Assembly: GCA_963575745.1 (NCBI GenBank)
Contig: CAUYUJ010017783.1
Span: forward strand, 112,344-176,343
DNA: 64,000 nt
Source: Prorocentrum cordatum
Lineage: Eukaryota > Sar > Dinophyceae > Prorocentrales > Prorocentraceae
Direction: 5' to 3'
This document shows positions 1,516 to 57,828 of this stretch, piece by piece. The translations under genes and the position numbers were made by a program. The notes under the pieces are model-generated. The model was not told where the DNA came from and searched no databases. It saw only the letters and a list, made by a program, of their open reading frames with translations. How positions within the stretch are numbered: position 1 is the first letter of the stretch; each line of letters starts with the position of its first letter.

Positions 1516-1654
1516 AAATCCCTATCCCTAGGTTTGGCATCACCTCACCTCGATGCCGATCTTAAGGATTCCCTAAATTTCTGAGGGCCTGTCCCTAAGA
1601 TTGTCCTCGCTTTGTGCTCGCCCATCTTAGGGAAAGGGATAGGTTCGAGGCTGG

Positions 1655-1782
1655 TTACTCTACAGGGGGAATACCCAAAAATCATCAAAAATAGTCAGGG
1701 GACGATGTTTTATCTGAATGTTTTGGATCTGTTCAGCGTTCGTCCAAAATCCGCGCCTGTAGGGAGGGGGACATGCCTGGCC
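1655..1782 (+). mobile_element. Inverted-repeat element, family C, degenerate copy
   Basis: Has the family C landmarks in order: TCTACAGGGGGAATA, AAAATAGTCAGGGGACGATG, CGTCCAAAATCCGC, CCTGTAGGGAGGGGGACATG. The outer left terminus is eroded. Same family as the intron at 2661-2815. Confidence 0.65.
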
Positions 1783-1836
1783 TACGAGGAGATCGAATCT
1801 GAGTTTGCTTGGGGCGAGGCTCGAAGAAGGAAAAAC

Positions 1837-2006
1837 GGCATAAACATAAACTTTTGGCGCTCCGCGCGGATTTCGTGGATCCGCGCTGAGCCCCACCAGC
1901 GGCGCTTCCGGCGCCGCTCCTGGCGCGCTCCGCGTGCCAGGGAGGGGGGGGGTCCAGCGCAGATCCAGGATATCCGCGCGGAGCGCCAACAGTTTATGTT
2001 TATAGC
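1837..2006. mobile_element. Foldback element, family H, copy 1
   Basis: Near-perfect long inverted repeat: left arm ATAAACATAAACTTTTGGCG then CTCCGCGCGGATTTCGTGG; right arm CCAGGATATCCGCGCGGAG then CGCCAACAGTTTATGTTTAT. The centre is rich in GGCGCC-like palindromes. Other copies at 41207, 57829 and 21410 (expanded), 44815, and half copies at 57586, 58025 and 5690. Confidence 0.75.
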
Positions 2007-2007
2007 G

Positions 2008-3223
2008 CTCGTGCTTCTTCAAGAGGTGGCTTTGGAGGTGCTCGGAAGAGCACGGAAGGCTGACCCTAGCAAGACCGTGCCCCACCCGTTGACCCTCTCC
2101 GTGCGCACGGAGATCGAGCTGCAGAGTGGCGCGCACATGCGCCGCGAGACTCACGTGGCGTGGCGTCGGGGCGCGGCGGGGTGGACCAGGTCCAGGAGCA
2201 GCAGCCTGGTCTACGTGCGAAGGCTATTCGAGGTCGCCGCCCCCTCCTACTCCTCGACGATGCCGGAGGCCTACGGCGCGGAGATGAAGTACACGTGCGG
2301 CCCCCGCGGCAGCATCTACGGCGGCCAGGCCTCGGGCTCGGACTTTGCCGCGTGCGTCCGGGGCGGGGCAGAGCAGGCGAGGGTCCGCGACAAGGCGAGC
2401 GGGAAGGACGAGGCCGAGCTGAAGAGGCTGCAGGCCGGGGCTGGACCCAAACGCTGTTCTGCTGGACTTCGGCTGTGTTTTGTGTTTCGTTTTGGCAGGG
2501 AGGTACAGGAGACCAGACAGTGCAGAACGGAAAACATAACGAAACACAGCGTCTAGGGCCAGCCCTGCTTCAGGCGGAGATCGACAAGCTGAAGAGGGAG
2601 CTCGAGCCCCTGCAAGATGCCGCAGACAACGCAGACGAGAATTCGGTCGAGGAGGCCCAGGCTTGAGTTGGGCATGTCCCTCTACAGGGGGAATATTCAA
2701 ACATACTATAACACGTCTGGGGACGATTTCTTGCCCATGTTTGAGTACTCGTTTAGTTTGTTTGTGGGGTATCTTTTATTTGTTTGTAGGGGGGACATGC
2801 CCGACCTAAGCCCAGGCTAAAGCTGACGAGACGGCGCGGAGCCTCCAGATCACAGAGAACAAGCTCGCCGAGCTGCTGAGCGGCCGGCCGCTGACTCTGA
2901 AGGAGTACGACGACGAGATCGTCGTGCGCGTGGACTTCCAGCCCTTGCCCCACTGCGAGTTCAGCCCTGGGTCGCTGCGAGAAATTAGCAACCCGGCTGC
3001 GGGCGAGAATGCCACCTACTCCGAGAATGCAAACGCTCGTGCGGCCGCGGCCATGATCCGTCGGGGGCAGGCCTGCACGACCGTGGACACACTCCACGGA
3101 GATACGTTCCTGTTCGATAACTACGTCGCAGGCTCGTACACGGGCGCGGAGACCCCCAAGAACACGCGCCGCGAAGTGATCTTGTCTCCCGTGGATGTGC
3201 TCGCTTGGCTTGGCGACCCCTGA
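2008..3223 (+). CDS. Three-exon gene (3' part), coiled-coil protein of unknown function
   Basis: Exons 2008?-2433, 2574-2660 and 2816-3223, all joined in phase 0. Splicing joins E-L-K-R-L-Q to A-E-I-D-K-L-K-R-E-L and then E-E-A-Q to A-K-A-D-E-T-A-R, giving an uninterrupted charged heptad-like (coiled-coil) stretch across both junctions. This is strong evidence that the exon calls are right. The last exon adds a C-terminal region of about 100 residues (includes V-R-V-D-F-Q-P-L-P-H-C-E-F and S-P-V-D-V-L-A-W-L-G-D-P) and ends at TGA. The N-terminal side has E-M-K-Y-T-C-G-P-R-G. No family recognised. The first exon's start is unknown; I place it after the foldback element that ends near 2006. Both introns are mobile-element copies. 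Confidence 0.7.
2434..2573 (+). mobile_element. Introner, family X (GC-AG intron)
   Basis: 140-bp intron beginning GCCGGGG and ending CTTCAG. Its body has imperfect terminal inverted repeats: GGGCTGGACCCAAACGCTGT at left, and the complement of GCGTCTAGGGCCAGCCCTG at right. The flanks CTGCAGGC (2428-2435) and CTTCAGGC (2568-2575) look like a target duplication that supplies both splice sites. Removing it restores frame and a coiled coil. Confidence 0.75.
2661..2815 (+). mobile_element. Introner, family C (GC-AG intron)
   Basis: 155-bp intron starting GCTTGAG and ending AAGCCCAG. The element body (2667-2805) has inverted termini GTTGGGCATGTCCC and GGGACATGCCCGAC plus inner CTACAGGGGG and TTGTAGGGGGG. 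A perfect 9-bp direct repeat, GCCCAGGCT, lies at 2655-2663 and 2810-2818. The duplicated CAG/GC provides the donor and the acceptor. Confidence 0.85.
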
Positions 3224-9804: not shown

Positions 9805-10085
9805 TATATCTGCCGCACTTTGGGCGATTTCGCAAGTAGGGCGGGCATGTCCGCCCAATGCTTAAGCACTTCCGATGTCCCTATGAGCTCCGCTCTGCCG
9901 TCGACAATTCCGCCATATGTTTGTGGCATTATCGATAATGCCGCAAACATATGGCGGATAAGTATCCGCCCCCGTTCTCTGAAGTAGACATTACCACCCC
10001 ATGTGTTCCATCGTGTGGGGCGCATGTCTGGCACAACTTGCAGTCGGAAAAGTCGCCAAAGCACGGCGGATCCGAAGTCGGGGAA
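9805..10085. mobile_element. Inverted-repeat element, family F, copy 1
   Basis: Left CTGCCGCACTTTGGGCGATT, TCGCAAGTAGGGCGGGCATG; right AAGTCGCCAAAGCACGGCGGATCCGAAG. The complement of this right end matches the family's other copy at 38890-39110. Contains a 48-bp near-perfect palindrome at its centre. Confidence 0.75.
9910..9957. repeat. 48-bp palindrome (cruciform-capable)
   Basis: CCGCCATATGTTTG-T-GGCATTATC then its mirror, ending CAAACATATGGCGG. One mismatched pair in 24. ATCGAT is at the centre, with no loop. Confidence 0.95.
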
Positions 10086-12161: not shown

Positions 12162-12329
12162 TACACCTTAGGCGATGCTTAAGAAAACCTAAGTTTTCGT
12201 CCAGAGTCTCGATTATTCTCAATTTTTCAATGTAAATCCCAAGATTTTGACAGAAGTTCTGTTTTTTTCTCAGATTCTGAGACTCTGAGTTTCTTAACCC
12301 ATGATTTCTTAAGCATTTCGCAGGGTGTA
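12162..12329 (+). mobile_element. Family B element, copy 2
   Basis: TACACCTTAGGCGATGCTTA to GCATTTCGCAGGGTGTA. Sits at the TA between the CCCTCCCCCA end of family Q and the start of family R. Family A occupies the same point at 21969. Confidence 0.9.
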
Positions 12330-12330
12330 C

Positions 12331-12470
12331 CCCCTTTGTGCGCGCCGCCAGAAGTTGGAGCGGCGCGAGCGGGCCGCACGCCGACTGTGGAGCCCCCTGG
12401 CACGGCGCGGACCTGCCACACGCCGAGCCCAGGCCCCCGACGCCATGATTTGCTTCATGACGTCGACCCC
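12331..12470 (+). repeat. Family R dispersed repeat
   Basis: TTTGTGCGCGCCGCCAGAAG, then two tandem-like versions of GGCACGGCGCG(A/G)ACCTGCCAC, then CCCCCGACGCCATGATTTG. The same order is at 22158-22280. Core also near 10755, 11185, 11668, 12690, 24525 and 41430. Confidence 0.75.
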
Positions 12471-12478
12471 CCGAGGGC

Positions 12479-12715
12479 TCGACCCCTTCCCGGGGGCCCG
12501 TGTTTCATCCCTGGTCGGTTCGAGGCCGAGAATAACGGCAACAAAAACGTCGACGGGGTCTGGGAGCGCAGGAGTCGCCACGGCGCAAGCCTGCCATCGA
12601 CCCCTTCCCCGGGGCCCGTGTTTCATCCTTGGTCGGTTCGAGGCCGAGAATAACGGCAACAAAAACGTCGACGGGGGTCTGGGAGCGCAGGAGTCGGCAC
12701 GGCGCACGCCTGCCA
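12479..12715 (+). repeat. Tandem duplication, 118-bp unit
   Basis: CGACCCCTTCC, GGGCCCGTGTTTCATCC, GGTCGGTTCGAGGCCGAGAA, ACAAAAACGTCGACGGGG and GGAGCGCAGGAGTCG appear at 12479 and again at 12599. Confidence 0.9.
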
Positions 12716-12769
12716 TCGACCGGGGGACGCGCGGAAATGGGCAAAATATTGCGCCACCTCGCCGGGGCA

Positions 12770-12826
12770 GGAGGAGGAAGGGGAGCAGGAGGAGGAGGAG
12801 GAGCAGGAGGAGGAGGAGGAGGAGAA
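12770..12826 (+). repeat. GGA/GCA tract
   Basis: Purine run immediately 5' of the reverse-transcriptase coding region. The RT frame stays open through it as an arginine run. Confidence 0.9.
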
Positions 12827-12840
12827 GCATCCGGCCCATT

Positions 12841-15800
12841 CGGCGCGCTGGGCAGGAGCATGCGGAGGAGGTGCGAACAGCGGTGGCGGCAGCGGCGGCG
12901 AGGCCGGCTTCTGATCTGGCCGTCCACGGGAACGCAGTAGTTGATGGCGTGGAGCCTGCGTCAGGTGCGCCGCCGGTAGTGCATCCGTCTTGGGATGCTG
13001 CTGCGCTGCCGAATCGGGCGTGGTGGGAGGCTCTCCCATGGCGGAGCGCCTTGGGCACAGGAGTTTCCACCTTCGTCCAGATTCCTGACAGGCACCGTGG
13101 CGCAATGGGGGCAGCTCGACGTAAGGCTCTTGAAGTGCTCCGGGAGGCTTGCGAACATGGGGCCGCCACAGCAGAGTGGAAGCTGGTATTCCTCTTTGAC
13201 CTTCTGTTGTTGGCTCGGCCGCGCAGGGACGGACAGACTTGCGCAGAGCTCTTGGAGGAACGCCTCGCCTTGTGGTGGGGCGGGCAATGGACCTTGTTGT
13301 GGGCCTCCGCCACTGGAGGCGCCCCGGCCCCTCGGGGGGCGGCTCGGCCAGCCACACAGAAGCAGAGGGCACAGCGGGTGCACACACTGGCCGCTGCTGG
13401 AGAGGAGGCTCGCGCCCTGGCTGCTGCCGCGAGTGCCCCGCTCGCGCCGCGCACGGCGGATACGTTCCGCCAGCTGCAGGCATGCTTCCCTGACGACGGA
13501 CCGGGGCAGCAGCCACCACCCCTGCAGCGCCAGCCGCCCACGGCGGAGCTCCGGGAGCAGGTCGAGGACGAGGTGCGCAAACTCCTGCGGCGCCCGCCCC
13601 GGCTGGCGGCACCTGGCCTCATGGGAACGCGCTTGGAGCACCTCGCCGCCAGCGCTGGCGACTACGAGACCTCTGGGCTGCTGGCCTGGGCCGCCGCGCG
13701 TGTGGCGTTTGGAGAGCTGCCCCAAGAGACACTCCAGGCGCTTCGGACAGGGGAGCTGGTGGCGCTAGCTAAAGGCGCGGGGGAGGTCCGCCCTCTCTTG
13801 GTGGGGGCCACGTTCCGCCGCCTCGGCCTCCGCGCGCTGGCCCGGGCGCGGAAGACGCAACTCTCCGAGGCAGCAGGGCCGCACCAGTACGGGGTCGGAC
13901 GCGCGGGCGGCGCAGCTCTCTTGGTGAAGCGCCTGCAAGCCCAAGCCGAAATCCGCCCGAACGCAACGTTCATCAAAGTTGACGTCAAAGCTGCGTTTCA
14001 ACGGATGAAGCGAGGGCCCGCCTTGGAGGCCATGAGAGCGGCCGTCCCCGAAGTGGCCGGGGCTCTGGAGGCATGGTACGCAGGGCCCGCCGACCACTAC
14101 TGGCGAGGAGCCGGGGGGCGCTTGGAGACTGTTCAAAGCAGCCGTGGCTTCGATCAAGGGTGCCCTTTGTCGCCGGCGGGCTTTTCAATCGGACAGAGAC
14201 AGGCCCTCGAGCAGCTACTGCGCGAGCTGCAGCTGCAGGACGCCGGCGCGAAGCTCTACTCCTACCTCGACGACACCTACCTGGTGCTGCGGGCAGACCT
14301 GGCCGCCCCCGCGCTGGCGCGCCTCAGCGCCCTCCTCGAGCCGCTGGGGCTAGAGCTCAACGCAGCGAAGACGCAGGTCTGGTCTCCGGCGGGGGCGCCG
14401 GCCATCCCTGGTGTGCTCGCGGGCAACGCGGTGTCGACGCTGCCCGTCCTTGGGGCGCAGCTTACTGCACCGGGGGACGCTGCCGGCGCCGCGCTCCGCC
14501 TGGGCGACTGCTGCTGCGGGCTCGACGAGGCGGCGACGCGCTTGCGACGCCTCTGGGGGCGCTTGCAGGAGCTCAGGGAGGGCGGCCTCTCGCGCCAGAG
14601 GGCAGGCGCCCTCCTGCGCACGTATGCGGGGAACGCCAGCCAGCACAATCTCCAGTTGACGTTGGCCGCCGACGGGGAGACCTTCAACTACGACGCCGCG
14701 CTGCGCGGCTGCTGGGAAGAACTTACGGGGCGGCCTCTGGGGCCCGAGGCGTGCGAGCTTTTGGGCCTGCCTGCGAAGGTTGGCGGCTGCGGAGTCCAGT
14801 GGGCAGCAACGCGCCGCGCGGCCGCCTTCTGGGCCAGCTGGACACAGGCCGCCGACGAGGTGCGACGCGACCTCGCGGCTGCTTCGCTGGAGGACGCCTT
14901 GGCGCGGCTCCCGCAGACCGCGGCGGCGCTGCACAGAGCGCGCGCAGAGCTTGAGCGCCAGGGTGCGGACCCCGGGCCGGACGCCCCCTTGGCGGCGGCG
15001 CTTGGAGCCCCGACGCGACAGAAGGTCGTGGTCGCGGCAGTGCATAAGAGAACCCACGTTGCAGCTAAGCAGCGAATGCACTGCCCTGGCCAGGCGACCC
15101 TCCTGTCGGCTGGGGGGCCCGGTGCGGGCGCCTTCCTGCAGTACCCCGCAGAGGTGGCGTGCGACCTCGAGGACGTGCACTGGGCGACGGCACTCCGCAG
15201 CCGACTCCACTTGCCGCGACCGGAGTGCGACCGCGACGAGCTGGCGCAAGCCTCCGCGACCTGCTGCAACCAGGCGCGCGACGGCACCACTTGCTCTGCT
15301 GCGCTCGACCCGGGCGGGTTCCACGCAGAGACTTGCCAGCCGGGCGGCGGCGTCGTCCAGCGCCACGCCGACTTGGCGAAAGCCGTGGGGGGCCTCGCGA
15401 AGCGGTGGGTGCATTGCTCCCCGCTCTACGAGCAGCGCGTCCCTGCGTGGGATCGGACCCGCTCGCGGCGTCTGGCGGAGGGGCCGGGGGGCCCGATTAT
15501 CGAGCGGGCCATCCTTGATGTCCAATACCCGGAGCCTGACGGCGACTGGTGGGTGGACGTCACTGTCCGCCACCCTGCTGCTGGAGACGACGCTGCCGCG
15601 CGGGCTGCGGCGCGCCGGGCAGGGGAAGCCTCGCGACGCGCTGAGCGCGAGAAGCACGGCCGGTACCCCGGTGATCGCCTGACGGCGTTCGCCGTGGAGA
15701 TCGGTGGCCGTCTTGGGGCTGAGGCCCGCGAGTGGTTGCTCGCCCACGTCCGCGAGCTCCCTGAGGACGTGCAGCCCAGAGAGCTCGCGCGGGCGTACCA

Positions 15801-15867
15801 GGTCATTAGCGCCGCGGTGCAGCGCCGTCGAGCGCTGCAGCTGCGCCGCGCAGCAGGCCTCCGCTGA
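12841..15867 (+). CDS. R2-like non-LTR retrotransposon reverse transcriptase with C-terminal CCHC/endonuclease-like region
   Basis: A single uninterrupted frame. It is open from 12325 but reaches there only through repeats; the first ATG outside repeats is at 13105, so the start is unsettled. RT signatures in order: V-R-P-L-L-V-G-A-T-F-R-R-L (about 13786); motif A F-I-K-V-D-V-K-A-A-F-Q-R-M (13969); motif B G-F-D-Q-G-C-P-L-S-P-A-G-F (14149); catalytic Y-L-D-D-T-Y-L-V (14263); then L-E-L-N-A-A-K-T-Q-V-W (14350). The C-terminal part has C-C-N-Q, T-T-C-S-A-A-L, then G-G-F-H-A-E-T-C (15262-15336), a CCHC-like arrangement. It ends with a region like a restriction-like endonuclease (L-D-V-Q-Y-P-E, W-W-V-D-V-T-V-R-H-P, R-E-K-H-G-R-Y-P, F-A-V-E-I-G-G-R). 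All catalytic RT aspartates are present and there is no stop. Autonomous activity cannot be judged because the 5' end, target and 3' tail are unclear. A host-domesticated RT is the alternative. Confidence 0.85.
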   Translation, partial: RRAGQEHAEEVRTAVAAAAARPASDLAVHGNAVVDGVEPASGAPPVVHPSWDAAALPNRAWWEALPWRSALGTGVSTFVQIPDRHRGAMGAARRKALEVLREACEHGAATAEWKLVFLFDLLLLARPRRDGQTCAELLEERLALWWGGQWTLLWASATGGAPAPRGAARPATQKQRAQRVHTLAAAGEEARALAAAASAPLAPRTADTFRQLQACFPDDGPGQQPPPLQRQPPTAELREQVEDEVRKLLRRPPRLAAPGLMGTRLEHLAASAGDYETSGLLAWAAARVAFGELPQETLQALRTGELVALAKGAGEVRPLLVGATFRRLGLRALARARKTQLSEAAGPHQYGVGRAGGAALLVKRLQAQAEIRPNATFIKVDVKAAFQRMKRGPALEAMRAAVPEVAGALEAWYAGPADHYWRGAGGRLETVQSSRGFDQGCPLSPAGFSIGQRQALEQLLRELQLQDAGAKLYSYLDDTYLVLRADLAAPALARLSALLEPLGLELNAAKTQVWSPAGAPAIPGVLAGNAVSTLPVLGAQLTAPGDAAGAALRLGDCCCGLDEAATRLRRLWGRLQELREGGLSRQRAGALLRTYAGNASQHNLQLTLAADGETFNYDAALRGCWEELTGRPLGPEACELLGLPAKVGGCGVQWAATRRAAAFWASWTQAADEVRRDLAAASLEDALARLPQTAAALHRARAELERQGADPGPDAPLAAALGAPTRQKVVVAAVHKRTHVAAKQRMHCPGQATLLSAGGPGAGAFLQYPAEVACDLEDVHWATALRSRLHLPRPECDRDELAQASATCCNQARDGTTCSAALDPGGFHAETCQPGGGVVQRHADLAKAVGGLAKRWVHCSPLYEQRVPAWDRTRSRRLAEGPGGPIIERAILDVQYPEPDGDWWVDVTVRHPAAGDDAAARAAARRAGEASRRAEREKHGRYPGDRLTAFAVEIGGRLGAEAREWLLAHVRELPEDVQPRELARAYQVISAAVQRRRALQLRRAAGLR

Positions 15868-49032: not shown

Positions 49033-49148
<116 letters not shown>

Positions 49149-50172
49149 GGCACACCCCTCACACGTTTCGTGGCCCCATAGGGAGCTCCACCGAAGGCCC
49201 AAATGGCTGCGTCCGCATGCCGCCGCCGCCCAATTTTGGCACACCCCTCACACGTTTCGTGGCCCCATAGGGAGCTCCACCGAAGGCCCAAATGGCTGCG
49301 TCCGCATGCCGCCGCCACCCAATTTTGGCACACCCCTCACACGTTTCGTGGCCCCATAGGGAGCTCCATCTAAGGCCCAAATGGCTGCGTCCGCATGCCG
49401 CCGCCGCCCATTTTGGCACACCCCTTCACACGTTTCGTGGCCCCATGGGGAGCTCCACCGAAGGCCCAAATGGCTGCGTCCGCATGCCGCCGCCGCCCAA
49501 TTTTGGCACACCCCTCACACGTTTCGTGGCCCCATAGGGAGCTCCATCTAAGGCCCAAATGGCTGCGTCCGCATGCCGCCGCCACCCCATTTTTGGCACA
49601 CCCCTTACACGTTTCGTGGCCCCATGGGGAGCTCCACCGAAGGCCCAAATGGCTGCGTCCGCATGCCGCCGCCGCCCAATTTTGGCACACCCCTCACACG
49701 TTTCGTGGCCCCATAGGGAGCTCCACCGAAGGCCCAAATGGCTGCGTCCGCATGCCGCCGCCACCCAATTTTGGCACACCCCTCACACGTTTCGTGGCCC
49801 CATAGGGAGCTCCACCGAAGGCCCAAATGGCTGCGTCCGCATGCCGCCGCCACCCAATTTTGGCACACCCCTCACACGTTTCGTGGCCCCATAGGGAGCT
49901 CCATCTAAGGCCCAAATGGCTGCGTCCGCATGCCGCCGGGCTGCACACATTCGTTTGGCCCCATGGGGAGCTCCACCGAAGGCCCAAATGGCTGCGTCCG
50001 CATGCCGCCGCCGCCCAATTTTGGCACACCCCTCACACGCTTCGTGGCCCCATAGGGAGCTCCATCTAAGGCCCAAATGGCTGCGTCCGCATGCCGCCGC
50101 CACCCCATATTTGGCACACCCCTTACACGTTTCGTGGCCCCATGAAGAGCTCCACCGAAGGCCCAAATGGCT
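49149..50172 (+). repeat. Tandem array, 89-bp unit, about 11 copies
   Basis: Unit: CACACCCCTCACACG, TTTCGTGGCCCCATAGGGAG, CTCCACCGAAGGCCC, AAATGGCTGCGTCCGCATGC, CGCCGCCGCCCAATTTTGG. Two sub-types alternate (CTCCACCGAAGG and CTCCATCTAAGG). Confidence 0.98.
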
Positions 50173-50181
50173 GCGGCCCAG

Positions 50182-50456
50182 GCGTGATCCTGGACTGCGG
50201 CCGCCACGAGGTCGGGAACGGCAAGAAGGAGGACGACGACTGGTGGCTGGAGCTCTACGCGCTGCTCTCGCGCGCCACGCGCCACGAGGATCTCCTGCTC
50301 ATGCGGGCGCCGCTCATCGAGTTCTTCCTGGCAGGGCCGCCGGAGGGCTTGCGGAAGCAGCTGGAGCAGTTTGCAGCGCGCACGAAGCGGCGCAGGAGGG
50401 AGGCGACGGCCCTCGCCAGAGAGCTGGGCTTCAGCGAGTTCATCCGCGAGGCCTGA
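50182..50456 (+). CDS. Terminal exon, probable helicase-like (SF1) protein
   Basis: Follows CGGCCCAG. Reads (G)-V-I-L-D-C-G-R-H-E-V-G-N-G-K-K-E-D-D-D, W-W-L-E-L-Y-A-L-L-S-R-A-T-R-H-E-D-L-L-L-M-R-A-P, E-F-F-L-A-G-P-P-E-G-L-R-K-Q-L-E-Q-F-A-A-R-T, A-R-E-L-G-F-S-E-F-I-R-E-A, TGA. The segment Y-A-L-L-S-R-A-T-x4-D-L-L-L-x-R-A-P is like the C-terminal A-L-S-R motif of Pif1/UvrD-type helicases, and I recall very similar endings in dinoflagellate predicted proteins. Basic helix and conserved tail. Its upstream intron would contain the satellite array. The frame is the only one with such composition, so coding is convincing; the exact family is less sure. Confidence 0.65.
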
Positions 50457-51112
50457 CCTGGGGAGCGGCCCCGCACGAGCCAGCGGCGCGCGCTGGTTGT
50501 CGCTGACGCTTGGATGACCCCAGCTCGTCGTCGGGATTTCTCGCCAGAGGATGACCGGCGCCTGTCGGGGGATTTCACCCAGATCGCGCCATTTTCGCAC
50601 GCCTCGCCACGCAGTACGGGGGCGCTATCCGTTGACTCAGAGTCGCAGTGGACAACCCCCGCGCGTCGATGGGATCCCCTCGGGATGACCAGACCGCGTC
50701 GGCGAGGACTTCCCAGGCACTTTCGCGCGGCGCCGCCTGCGCGCTGCGTTCTGCGTGCCTCGCTGTCGGTCTGGAGGCAAAAACGTTTCTCCTCGTCTCT
50801 CGTTCCTCCTGCTTCCAATCGCTTCTTGACCGCGCGCTCCCCCGTCTCGTTTCTGCCGCTGCTGACCTGCCTTCGACATCTACACGGTGTCTCCGTCACC
50901 TCTTCCTGCGTGCCCAGTAACAGGTCTCATGATGCGATGATGATACTGATGTGTTGGCTCGCCCCAGTGAGCTCTCCTCCTCCGCCCGCCACCTCCTGCC
51001 CGCGCTGCCCTGTGCCTCGTCCATGCAGTGGCGCGGTGCCTGTGAGAAGAGGGGCCTAGTTTGCGCGCCCCCTCCTTCGTCTCGTATCCGCGCGGCACTC
51101 GCAGCTGCATGC
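50457..51112. other. 3' flank of the exon, no gene
   Basis: Unique sequence, moderate composition. Likely 3' UTR and spacer. No polyadenylation signal or tRNA-like structure noted. Confidence 0.4.
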
Positions 51113-51155
51113 GGTTGGGTCCTTCGCCAGGCTAATCCTGGCGAAGGACCCAACC
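51113..51155. repeat. Perfect 19-bp inverted repeat, 5-nt loop
   Basis: GGTTGGGTCCTTCGCCAGG - CTAAT - CCTGGCGAAGGACCCAACC. Confidence 0.98.
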
Positions 51156-51189
51156 GTGTGCAATTGTGCACTTGCGGGTGCCGCTTTCG

Positions 51190-53365
51190 GTGGGGCTCCT
51201 TATGGGGCCACGAAAGGCGTGCCACGAAACGCTGTCCTGGGTGCACGGGACGCATGAGGGCGGTAGCACTGGGGTCTTCGGTGGCGCTCCCTATGGGGCC
51301 ACGAAACGTGTGAGGGGTGCGCCGAAATGGGTGCGGCGCCGCCATGCGGACGCAGCCACTGGGGCCTTCGGTGGAGCTCCCTATGGGGCCACGAAACGTG
51401 TGAGGGGTGTGCCGAAATGGGTGCGGCGCCGCCATGCGGACGCAGCCAGTTGGGCCTTCGGTGGAGCTCCCTATGGGGCCACGAAACGTGCGATGGGTGT
51501 GCCGAAATGGGTGCGGTGCCACCATGCGGACGCAGCCACTGGGGCCTTCGGTGGAGCTCCCTATGGGGCCACGAAACGTGTGAGGGGTGTGCCGAAATGG
51601 GTGGGGCCGCCATGCGGACGCAGCCACTGGGGCCTTCGGTGGAGCTCCCTATGGGCCACGAAGCGTGTGAGGGTGTGCCGAAATGGTGCGGCGCCGCCAT
51701 GCGAACGCAGCCACTGGGGCCTTCGGTGGATGGGCCACGAAACGTGAGGGGTGGGGCGGCACCGCCATGCGGACGCAGCCACTGGAGCTTTCGGAAGAGC
51801 TCCCTATGGGGCCACGAAGCGCGCGAGGGGTGTACCGAAATGAGTGCGGCGCCGCCATGCGGACGCAGCCACTGGGGCCTTCGGTGGAGCTCCTTATGGG
51901 GCCACGGAACGTGTGAGGGGTGTGCCGAAATGGGTGCGGCGCCGCCATGCGGAGGCAGCCACTGGGGCCTTCGGTGGTGCTCCCTATGGGGCCACGAGAC
52001 GTGTGATGGGTGTCCCGAAATGGGTGCGGCACCGCCATGCGGACGCAGCCACTGGGGCCTTCGGTGGAGCTCCAAATGGGCCACGAAACGTGTGAGGCGC
52101 GTGCCGAAATGGGTGTGGCGCCGCCATGCGGACGCAGCCACTGGGGCCTTCGGTGGAGCTCCCTATGGGGCCACGAGACATGTGAGGGGTGTGCCGAAAT
52201 GGGTGCGGCGCCGCCATGCGGACGCAGCCGCTGGGGCCTTCGGTGGAGCTCCCTATGGGGCCACGAAGCGTGTGAGGGTGTGCCGAAATGGGTGCGGCGC
52301 CGCCATGCGGACGCAGCCGCTGGGGCCTTCCGTGGAGCTCTCTATGGGGCCACGAAGCGTGTGAGGGGTGTGCCGAAATGGGCGCGGCGCCGCCGTGCGG
52401 ACGCAGCCACTGGGGCCTTCGGTGGAGCTCCCTATGGGGCCACGAAACGCGTGAGGGGTGTCCCGAAATGGGTGCGGCACCGCCATGCGGGCGCAGCCAC
52501 TGGGGCCTTCGGTGGAGCTCCCTATGGGGCCACGAAACGTGTGAGGGGTGTACCGAAATGGGTGCGGCGCCGCCATGCAGACGCAGCAACTGGGGCCTTC
52601 AGTGGAGTTCCCCATGGGGCCACGAAACGTGTGAGGGGTGTGCCGAAATGGGTGCGGCACCGCCATGCGGACGCAGCCACTGGGGCCTTCGGTGGAGCTC
52701 CAAATGGGCCACGAAGCGTGTGAGGGGTGTGCCGACATGGGTGCGGCGCCGCCATGCGGACGCAGCCACTGGGGCCTTCGGTGGAGTTCCCTATGGGGGC
52801 CACGAAACGTGTGAAGGGTGCGCCGAAATGGGTGCGGCGCCGCCATGCGAACGCAGCCACTGGGGCACTCGGTGGAGCTCCATATGGGGCCACGAAGCGT
52901 GTGAGGGGTGTGCCGACATGGGTGCGGTGCCGCCATGCGGACGCAGCCATTGGGGCCCTCGGTGGAGCTCCTTATGGGGCCACGAAACGTGTGAGGGGTG
53001 TGCCGAAATTGGTGCGGCGCCGCCATGCGGACGCAGCCACTGGGGCCCTCGGTGGAGCTCCCTATGGGGCAACGAAACGTGCGAGGGGTGTGCCGACATG
53101 GGCGTGGCGCCGCCATGCGGACGCAGCCACTGGGGCCCTCGGTGGAGCTCCTTATGGGGGCACGAAACGTGTGAGGGGTGTGCCGAAATGTGTGCGGTGC
53201 CGCCATGCGGACGCAGCCACTGGGGCCTTCGGTGGAGCTCCCTATGGGGCCACGAAGCGTGTGAGGGGTGTGCCGAAATGGGTGCGGCGCCGCCATGCGG
53301 ACGCAGCCACTGGGGCCTTCAGAGGAGCCCCCTTATGGGGCCACGAAACGCGTGAGGGGTGTGCC
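51190..53365 (-). repeat. Tandem array, 90-bp unit, about 24 copies
   Basis: Unit (plus strand): GGGGCCTTCGGTGGAGCTCC, CTATGGGGCCACGAAACGTG, TGAGGGGTGTGCCGAAATGG, GTGCGGCGCCGCCATGCGGA, CGCAGCCACT. 90 is divisible by three, so four frames stay open for up to 355 codons. Confidence 0.98.
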
Positions 53366-53589
53366 GTGCTAGTGGGAGGAGGGGGGGAGGGAGGGGGGAG
53401 GAGGCGGAGGAGGAGGAAGGAAGGAAGGCAGGAGATGAGACGCGGGGCACCGTCTCTTCAAAACGAGGACCCAACACCACAGGATGGTTGGGAATTACCC
53501 TGTGACGTACCCAACACATTTGTATCAATGGAAACGAGGAGTTGGCCGAAACTTGTATGGACAATCAACTTGACGTGTGAGCTACTACG

Positions 53590-57816: not shown

Positions 57817-57828
57817 CCCAAGACAAAA

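What the first reader, a model, noticed from the sequence alone, without database searches (positions are those of the whole stretch)
2434..2815. Two unrelated inverted-repeat elements act as introns in one gene
Both introns of the gene at 2008-3223 are whole mobile-element copies (families X and C). Each is flanked by a direct repeat containing CAGGC (9-bp perfect GCCCAGGCT for family C). The duplicated CAG/GC gives donor GC and acceptor CAG. Removing both keeps phase 0 and joins one coiled coil. Seeing two families use the same trick side by side is a direct view of intron gain by transposition (introners are known in dinoflagellates; these families may be new).
Basis: partly seen in the sequence, partly recalled or inferred. 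Interest (0 to 1): 0.88.

Follow-up and report, generated by a model that had tools for sequence, protein, structure and literature searches.

The report
Two transposon-made introns in one gene
In a dinoflagellate gene, two introns side by side each look like a whole copy of a different small transposon family, with the short target repeats made at insertion supplying both splice sites; such transposon-made introns are already known in this group, so this is a clear new example and not a new kind of thing.

Summary
The window lies in a 4.13-Gb genome that fits Prorocentrum cordatum. The two inserts in the gene (X, C) are whole copies of two inverted-repeat families with many copies in the genome. 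Each TSD holds CAG|GC: the left copy gives a GC donor, the right copy a CAG acceptor. Removing both leaves one 306-codon frame with coding periodicity; retaining either breaks it. The same rule joins Pfam domains across other copies: X in SNF2, PPR and ion-channel genes and, weakly, C in a glucosidase II beta-like gene. Only 31 of 3,048 exact X ends and 651 of 37,184 exact C ends follow CAGGY, and few of the 90 such loci examined look exonic. Splicing and empty sites are inferred, not shown: no transcripts are held and no usable paralogue was found. Published introners already work this way, including in dinoflagellates, where GC donors are common. Verdict: new member of a known kind.

The parts
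2008..2433 (+). exon with coding periodicity, upstream of X; true 5' end not determined
   Evidence: open frame, GC3 0.78-0.96 in its 50-codon blocks
2428..2435 (+). left TSD of X, CTGCAGGC; CAG|GC gives the donor at 2433/2434
   Evidence: sequence; 8-bp TSD defined on family copies
2434..2573 (+). inferred intron 1, GC-AG, 140 bp, made of element X plus TSD parts
   Evidence: frame restored on removal
2436..2567 (+). element X, 132 bp; 18-bp terminal inverted repeats, each with 2 mismatches to the family form CAGGGCTGGACCTAAACG
2568..2575 (+). right TSD of X, CTTCAGGC (7/8); CAG| acceptor at 2573/2574
2574..2660 (+). middle exon, coiled-coil-like segment, phase 0 at both ends
2655..2662 (+). 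left TSD of C, GCCCAGGC; donor at 2660/2661
2661..2815 (+). inferred intron 2, GC-AG, 155 bp, made of element C plus TSD parts
   Evidence: frame restored on removal
2663..2809 (+). element C, 147 bp, ends TTGAGTTGGGC...GCCCGACCTAA (family form TTAAGTCGGGC...GCCCGACCTAA)
2810..2817 (+). right TSD of C, GCCCAGGC (8/8); acceptor at 2815/2816
2816..3223 (+). last exon, stop codon at 3221-3223
   Evidence: one search lists one other genome place, matching residues 264-304, 69% identical
1650..1784 (+). another, diverged C-family copy just upstream of the gene
   Evidence: BLAST and nhmmer

Best explanation
X and C are non-autonomous DNA transposons (MITEs) of two families, most like hAT in leaving 8-bp TSDs. 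Each inserted into an exon at a site reading NNNCAGGC. The duplication put one CAG|GC on each side. The host spliceosome, which uses GC donors for about half of introns in P. cordatum, uses the left copy as donor and the right copy as acceptor, so the mRNA regains its pre-insertion sequence. The elements supply only the body of the intron. Shown: families, TSDs, frame restoration, domain restoration at other copies. Inferred: species name, splicing, transposition by a hAT-type transposase, order and date of the two gains.
For: 8-bp TSD: X at least 7/8 in 13 of 21 copies against 1 of 420 cross-pairings; C 13 of 26 against 1 of 650. Removing both inserts restores one coding frame with GC3-GC2 of at least 0.40 on both sides of each junction. 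The same CAG|GY rule at other X copies joins Pfam domains: SNF2 59.6 bits joined against 36.9 and 15.4 for the pieces; Ion_trans 28.0 joined (cut-off 25) against none and 13.0; PPR 63.6 against 36.6 and 22.9 (the pieces were short stretches beside the junction, and for PPR the split codon was left out). For one C copy, PRKCSH-like is 29.3 bits joined against 19.5 and none, below its curated cut-off of 34.9. 31 of 3,048 exact X ends and 651 of 37,184 exact C ends are preceded by CAGGY, so two such sites in one gene by chance is about 2e-4 (post hoc, assumes independence, and the two window copies themselves do not match the exact end patterns counted). P. cordatum donors are GC 51.4%, GT 24.7%, GA 23.8%; 79.7% of acceptors have AGG.
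Against: No transcript evidence. No empty site: the only other genome match covers residues 264-304, away from both introns (367 candidates, 129 scored). Donor-capable copies are mostly not in recognisable exons: the coding score is met by 5 of 30 X loci and 0 of 60 C loci (one C locus, L096, by domain only), against 0 of 18 X and 0 of 25 C without CAGGY. That difference is not significant (Fisher p = 0.14 for X; pooled p = 0.18). Of the 60 C loci only 27 show a right-hand repeat at 7 or 8 of 8, so many of those joins are unsure. L063 also scores in antisense (0.27), C itself too (0.31), and L068 passes on 17 codons on one side. L057's insert would leave its frame open if retained. No transposase was sought. 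The planned CAGGR control counts did not complete.
Confidence: 0.86

Rival explanations
1. The gene is a decaying pseudogene or unexpressed copy that took two MITE insertions; the splice-like repeats are coincidence.
For: The X and C copies examined lie mostly outside recognisable exons; the protein has no Pfam match above cut-off; no transcript data.
Against: No stop or frameshift outside the inserts from 2008 to 3220; coding periodicity along the exons; both TSDs are of the 1-2% type that can splice.
Confidence: 0.07
2. The introns are older than the elements: the elements inserted into, or replaced, existing introns and did not create them.
For: C is not close to the copies found: 71-75% identity in the near-full-length matches listed, 72% in the best-scoring one; P. 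cordatum has about 9.8 introns per gene.
Against: Element plus TSD accounts for every base of each intron; an insertion inside an older intron would leave extra sequence between TSD and splice site.
Confidence: 0.05
3. Introns that spread by RNA (reverse splicing), as proposed for fungal introner-like elements.
For: Insertions in coding sequence at AG|G sites.
Against: 8-bp TSDs and terminal inverted repeats in both families, and nearly all exact ends (3,017 of 3,048 for X; 36,533 of 37,184 for C) are not preceded by CAGGY.
Confidence: 0.02

Closest known systems
Introners with DNA-transposon features (Gozashti et al. 2022, PMC9860276; passages read)
   Same: TIRs, TSDs, splice sites recruited from the TSD or insertion site (both, in the Florenciella case), GC donors up to 50% in some families, 1 to 43 families per genome.
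   Different: The dinoflagellate case shown there (Symbiodinium) has 4-bp TSDs and carries its own 3' site; here TSDs are 8 bp and both sites come from the TSD.
Introner elements of Amoebophrya (Farhat et al. 2021, PMC7789003; passages read)
   Same: Inverted repeats inside the intron and direct repeats over the exon/intron borders; non-canonical donors.
   Different: Direct repeats of 3-5 nt and varied non-canonical borders there; here 8 bp and a GC-AG intron, the commonest type of the host.
Introners in Polarella and other dinoflagellates (Roy et al. 2023, as cited in passages of PMC11453091; paper not read)
   Same: Many introner families per genome: 15 families in P. glacialis with at least 100 introns each, as cited.
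P. cordatum introner elements (Dougan et al. 2023, PMC10666404; passages and section 5 read)
   Same: Very probably the same genome; introns reported as enriched in inverted-repeat introners.
   Different: That paper used a pattern search for 8-20-nt inverted and 3-5-nt direct repeats; families such as X and C were not named in the text read.

Membership tests
Introner | Related copies form introns in several unrelated genes | tested here: met
   X: window gene, SNF2, PPR, Ion_trans. C: window gene and one PRKCSH-like gene below its cut-off, so thin for C. All by restored frame or domain, not RNA.
Introner | Precise splicing of the insert in transcripts | not testable with these tools
   no transcript collection
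Introner | Empty site in a relative or paralogue | tested here: inconclusive
Introner of DNA-transposon type | TSD plus TIR | tested here: met
hAT MITE | 8-bp TSD | tested here: met
   X 13/21, C 13/26 with at least 7/8; hAT TSD size from passages of PMC3942097
hAT MITE | short TIRs, 10-25 bp | tested here: met
   18-base ends used for X, 17-base ends for C; hAT range from passages of PMC3942097
hAT MITE | mobilised by a hAT transposase with matching ends | not tested
   no transposase search made; other superfamilies also leave 8-bp TSDs (recalled)

The most novel reading that the evidence does not exclude
Splice competence is set by transposase target choice, not by the element. C prefers 8-bp targets centred on CTAG (nnCTAGnn) and X, more weakly, targets with a central YRG, which already hold the AG of a splice site. 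A genome whose spliceosome takes GC donors and NAG|G acceptors then turns any such MITE family into an intron source, with no element-borne splice signal.
Probability: 0.3. Interest if true: 0.6.

Novelty: new member of a known kind. Interest (0 to 1): 0.4.

Why it matters
One gene shows two different families using the same route to a new intron, with the TSDs still readable. The genome holds tens of thousands of exact C ends, 1.8% of them at donor-capable targets, so it offers a natural experiment on which transposon insertions become introns. The general phenomenon is already published.

Tried and rejected
Nine-bp TSD for C (suggesting another superfamily): rejected, since the ninth base matches in only 7 of 26 copies. 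Strong bias of the elements to coding exons: not supported. Enrichment of CAGGY over CAGGR ends: not testable, the control searches did not complete (for X; 91, 96, 98, 102, 104, 106, 110, 113, 116, 121, 124, 128, 130 for C). Viral contigs: no match to one C-end pattern (that tool may leave out records of the window's own genome). Protein database search: switched off. Pfam for the window protein: only weak matches under cut-off, mostly over the coiled coil. Literature searches, listings only: (no paper); none of these titles or abstract starts names families X or C, but Roy et al. 2023 was not read and supplements were not open, so no claim is made that they are unpublished.

Full report
Where it lies. 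The window is part of one contig of a 4.128-Gb, 21,875-contig genome. Assembly size and G+C fit Prorocentrum cordatum CCMP1329 (4.15 Gb, 22,724 scaffolds, 59.7% G+C; PMC10666404 section 5); the window is 62.3% G+C. The name is an inference.

The gene. Joining 2008-2433, 2574-2660 and 2816-3223 gives 306 codons and a stop; keeping either insert puts a stop in the frame. GC3 runs 0.67-0.96. Pfam gives only matches below cut-off, mostly over the coiled coil. The 5' end is open: the frame runs on upstream through other repeats.

Family X. A genome search gave 2,568 candidates, of which 40 were scored and listed. I fetched 20 of them (L009-L028) and used them with the window copy. The ends are CAGGGCTGGACCTAAACG and its complement; the element is 130-133 bp in 17 of the 21 copies and 143 bp in 4. 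The 8 bp outside match at 7 or 8 positions in 13 of 21 copies, against 1 of 420 pairings between copies. The window copy scores 7 of 8.

Family C. 860 candidates, 40 scored and listed; 20 regions fetched (L037-L056), plus copies in the window. The ends are TTAAGTCGGGC...GCCCGACCTAA. The 8 bp outside match at 7 or 8 positions in 13 of the 26 copies with both ends recognisable, against 1 of 650; copies with poor ends were dropped. In the 18 copies with at least 6 of 8, the target reads nnCTAGnn: T at position 4 in 14, A at 5 in 12, G at 6 in 11. For X, from 16 copies with at least 6 of 8, the target, read on both strands, is weakly nTCYRGAn. The window TSD of C is GCCCAGGC on both sides.

How splicing would work. 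Both TSDs read NNNCAGGC. The left copy gives CAG|GC as donor, the right copy CAG| as acceptor, and exactly element plus one TSD length is removed. In P. cordatum GC is the commonest donor (51.4%) and 79.7% of acceptors have AGG, so these are ordinary introns for that species.

Other copies. A whole-genome pattern count found 31 X ends preceded by CAGGY among 3,048 exact ends; an element with two exact ends counts twice. Of the 30 fetched (L057-L086; two of them are the copies L012 and L013 again), 20 have a second repeat matching at 7 or more of 8 (which allowed an offset of up to 13 bases). Joining at CAG|GY restores an SNF2 domain in L084, PPR repeats in L063 and an Ion_trans domain in L069, each scoring more than either piece; L060 has strong periodicity but no Pfam match; L057 sits downstream of P-type ATPase domains in the same frame, but would stay open if retained. 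For C, 651 of 37,184 exact ends have CAGGY (the reversed-pattern control gave 12 against 37,184). I fetched 60 of the 651, the first in the listing; 27 of these 60 show a second repeat at 7 or 8 of 8. One (L096) restores a PRKCSH-like match, below its cut-off.

How common introns are. A coding score (GC3-GC2 of at least 0.25 on both sides of the join) is met by 5 of 30 X loci (L060, L063, L068, L069, L084) and 0 of 60 C loci with CAGGY, and by 0 of 18 X and 0 of 25 C without it. Two of the 20 X loci were dropped from the control because they have CAGGC; both score below 0.25. The window copy C0 was dropped from the 26 C copies. The difference is not significant (p = 0.14 for X; pooled and counting L096, 6 of 90 against 0 of 43, p = 0.18). 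So the copies of both families seen here, even donor-capable ones, are mostly not visible exonic introns; the two in the window belong to a minority. The chance that two inserts in one gene both have CAGGY is about 2e-4 from the genome counts, a post-hoc figure; the window copies themselves do not match the exact end patterns that were counted.

What was not reached. No transcripts are available. The CAGGR control searches did not complete. No transposase was sought.

Comparison. Published introners already include TSD-supplied splice sites, both sites recruited from the target, GC donors and up to 43 families per genome (PMC9860276, passages), introners in dinoflagellates (PMC7789003, passages; PMC11453091, passages) and enrichment in P. 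cordatum introns (PMC10666404). This is a new member of a known kind, unusually legible because two families sit 87 bases of exon apart.

Noticed in passing
window 12313-15864 (+): 1,184-codon open frame with a reverse transcriptase domain (RVT_1, E 4.6e-14); possibly LINE-like, not examined further.
   Followed up: no
window 1840-2003: A third inverted-repeat element with 32-base arms (ATAAACATAAAC...) lies just upstream of the gene; similar sequence flanks the C copy that ends near 57,820.
   Followed up: partly
window 9910-9957: Near-perfect 48-base palindrome, 2 mismatches to its own reverse complement.
   Followed up: no
window 49051-53474: Long tandem arrays of about 89-90-bp units in opposite orientations (D4, D9 and inverted pairs I1-I20).
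   Followed up: no
genome-wide, family C ends: 37,184 exact 17-base C ends in 4.13 Gb: a very abundant short-element family, with a CTAG-centred target.
   Followed up: partly
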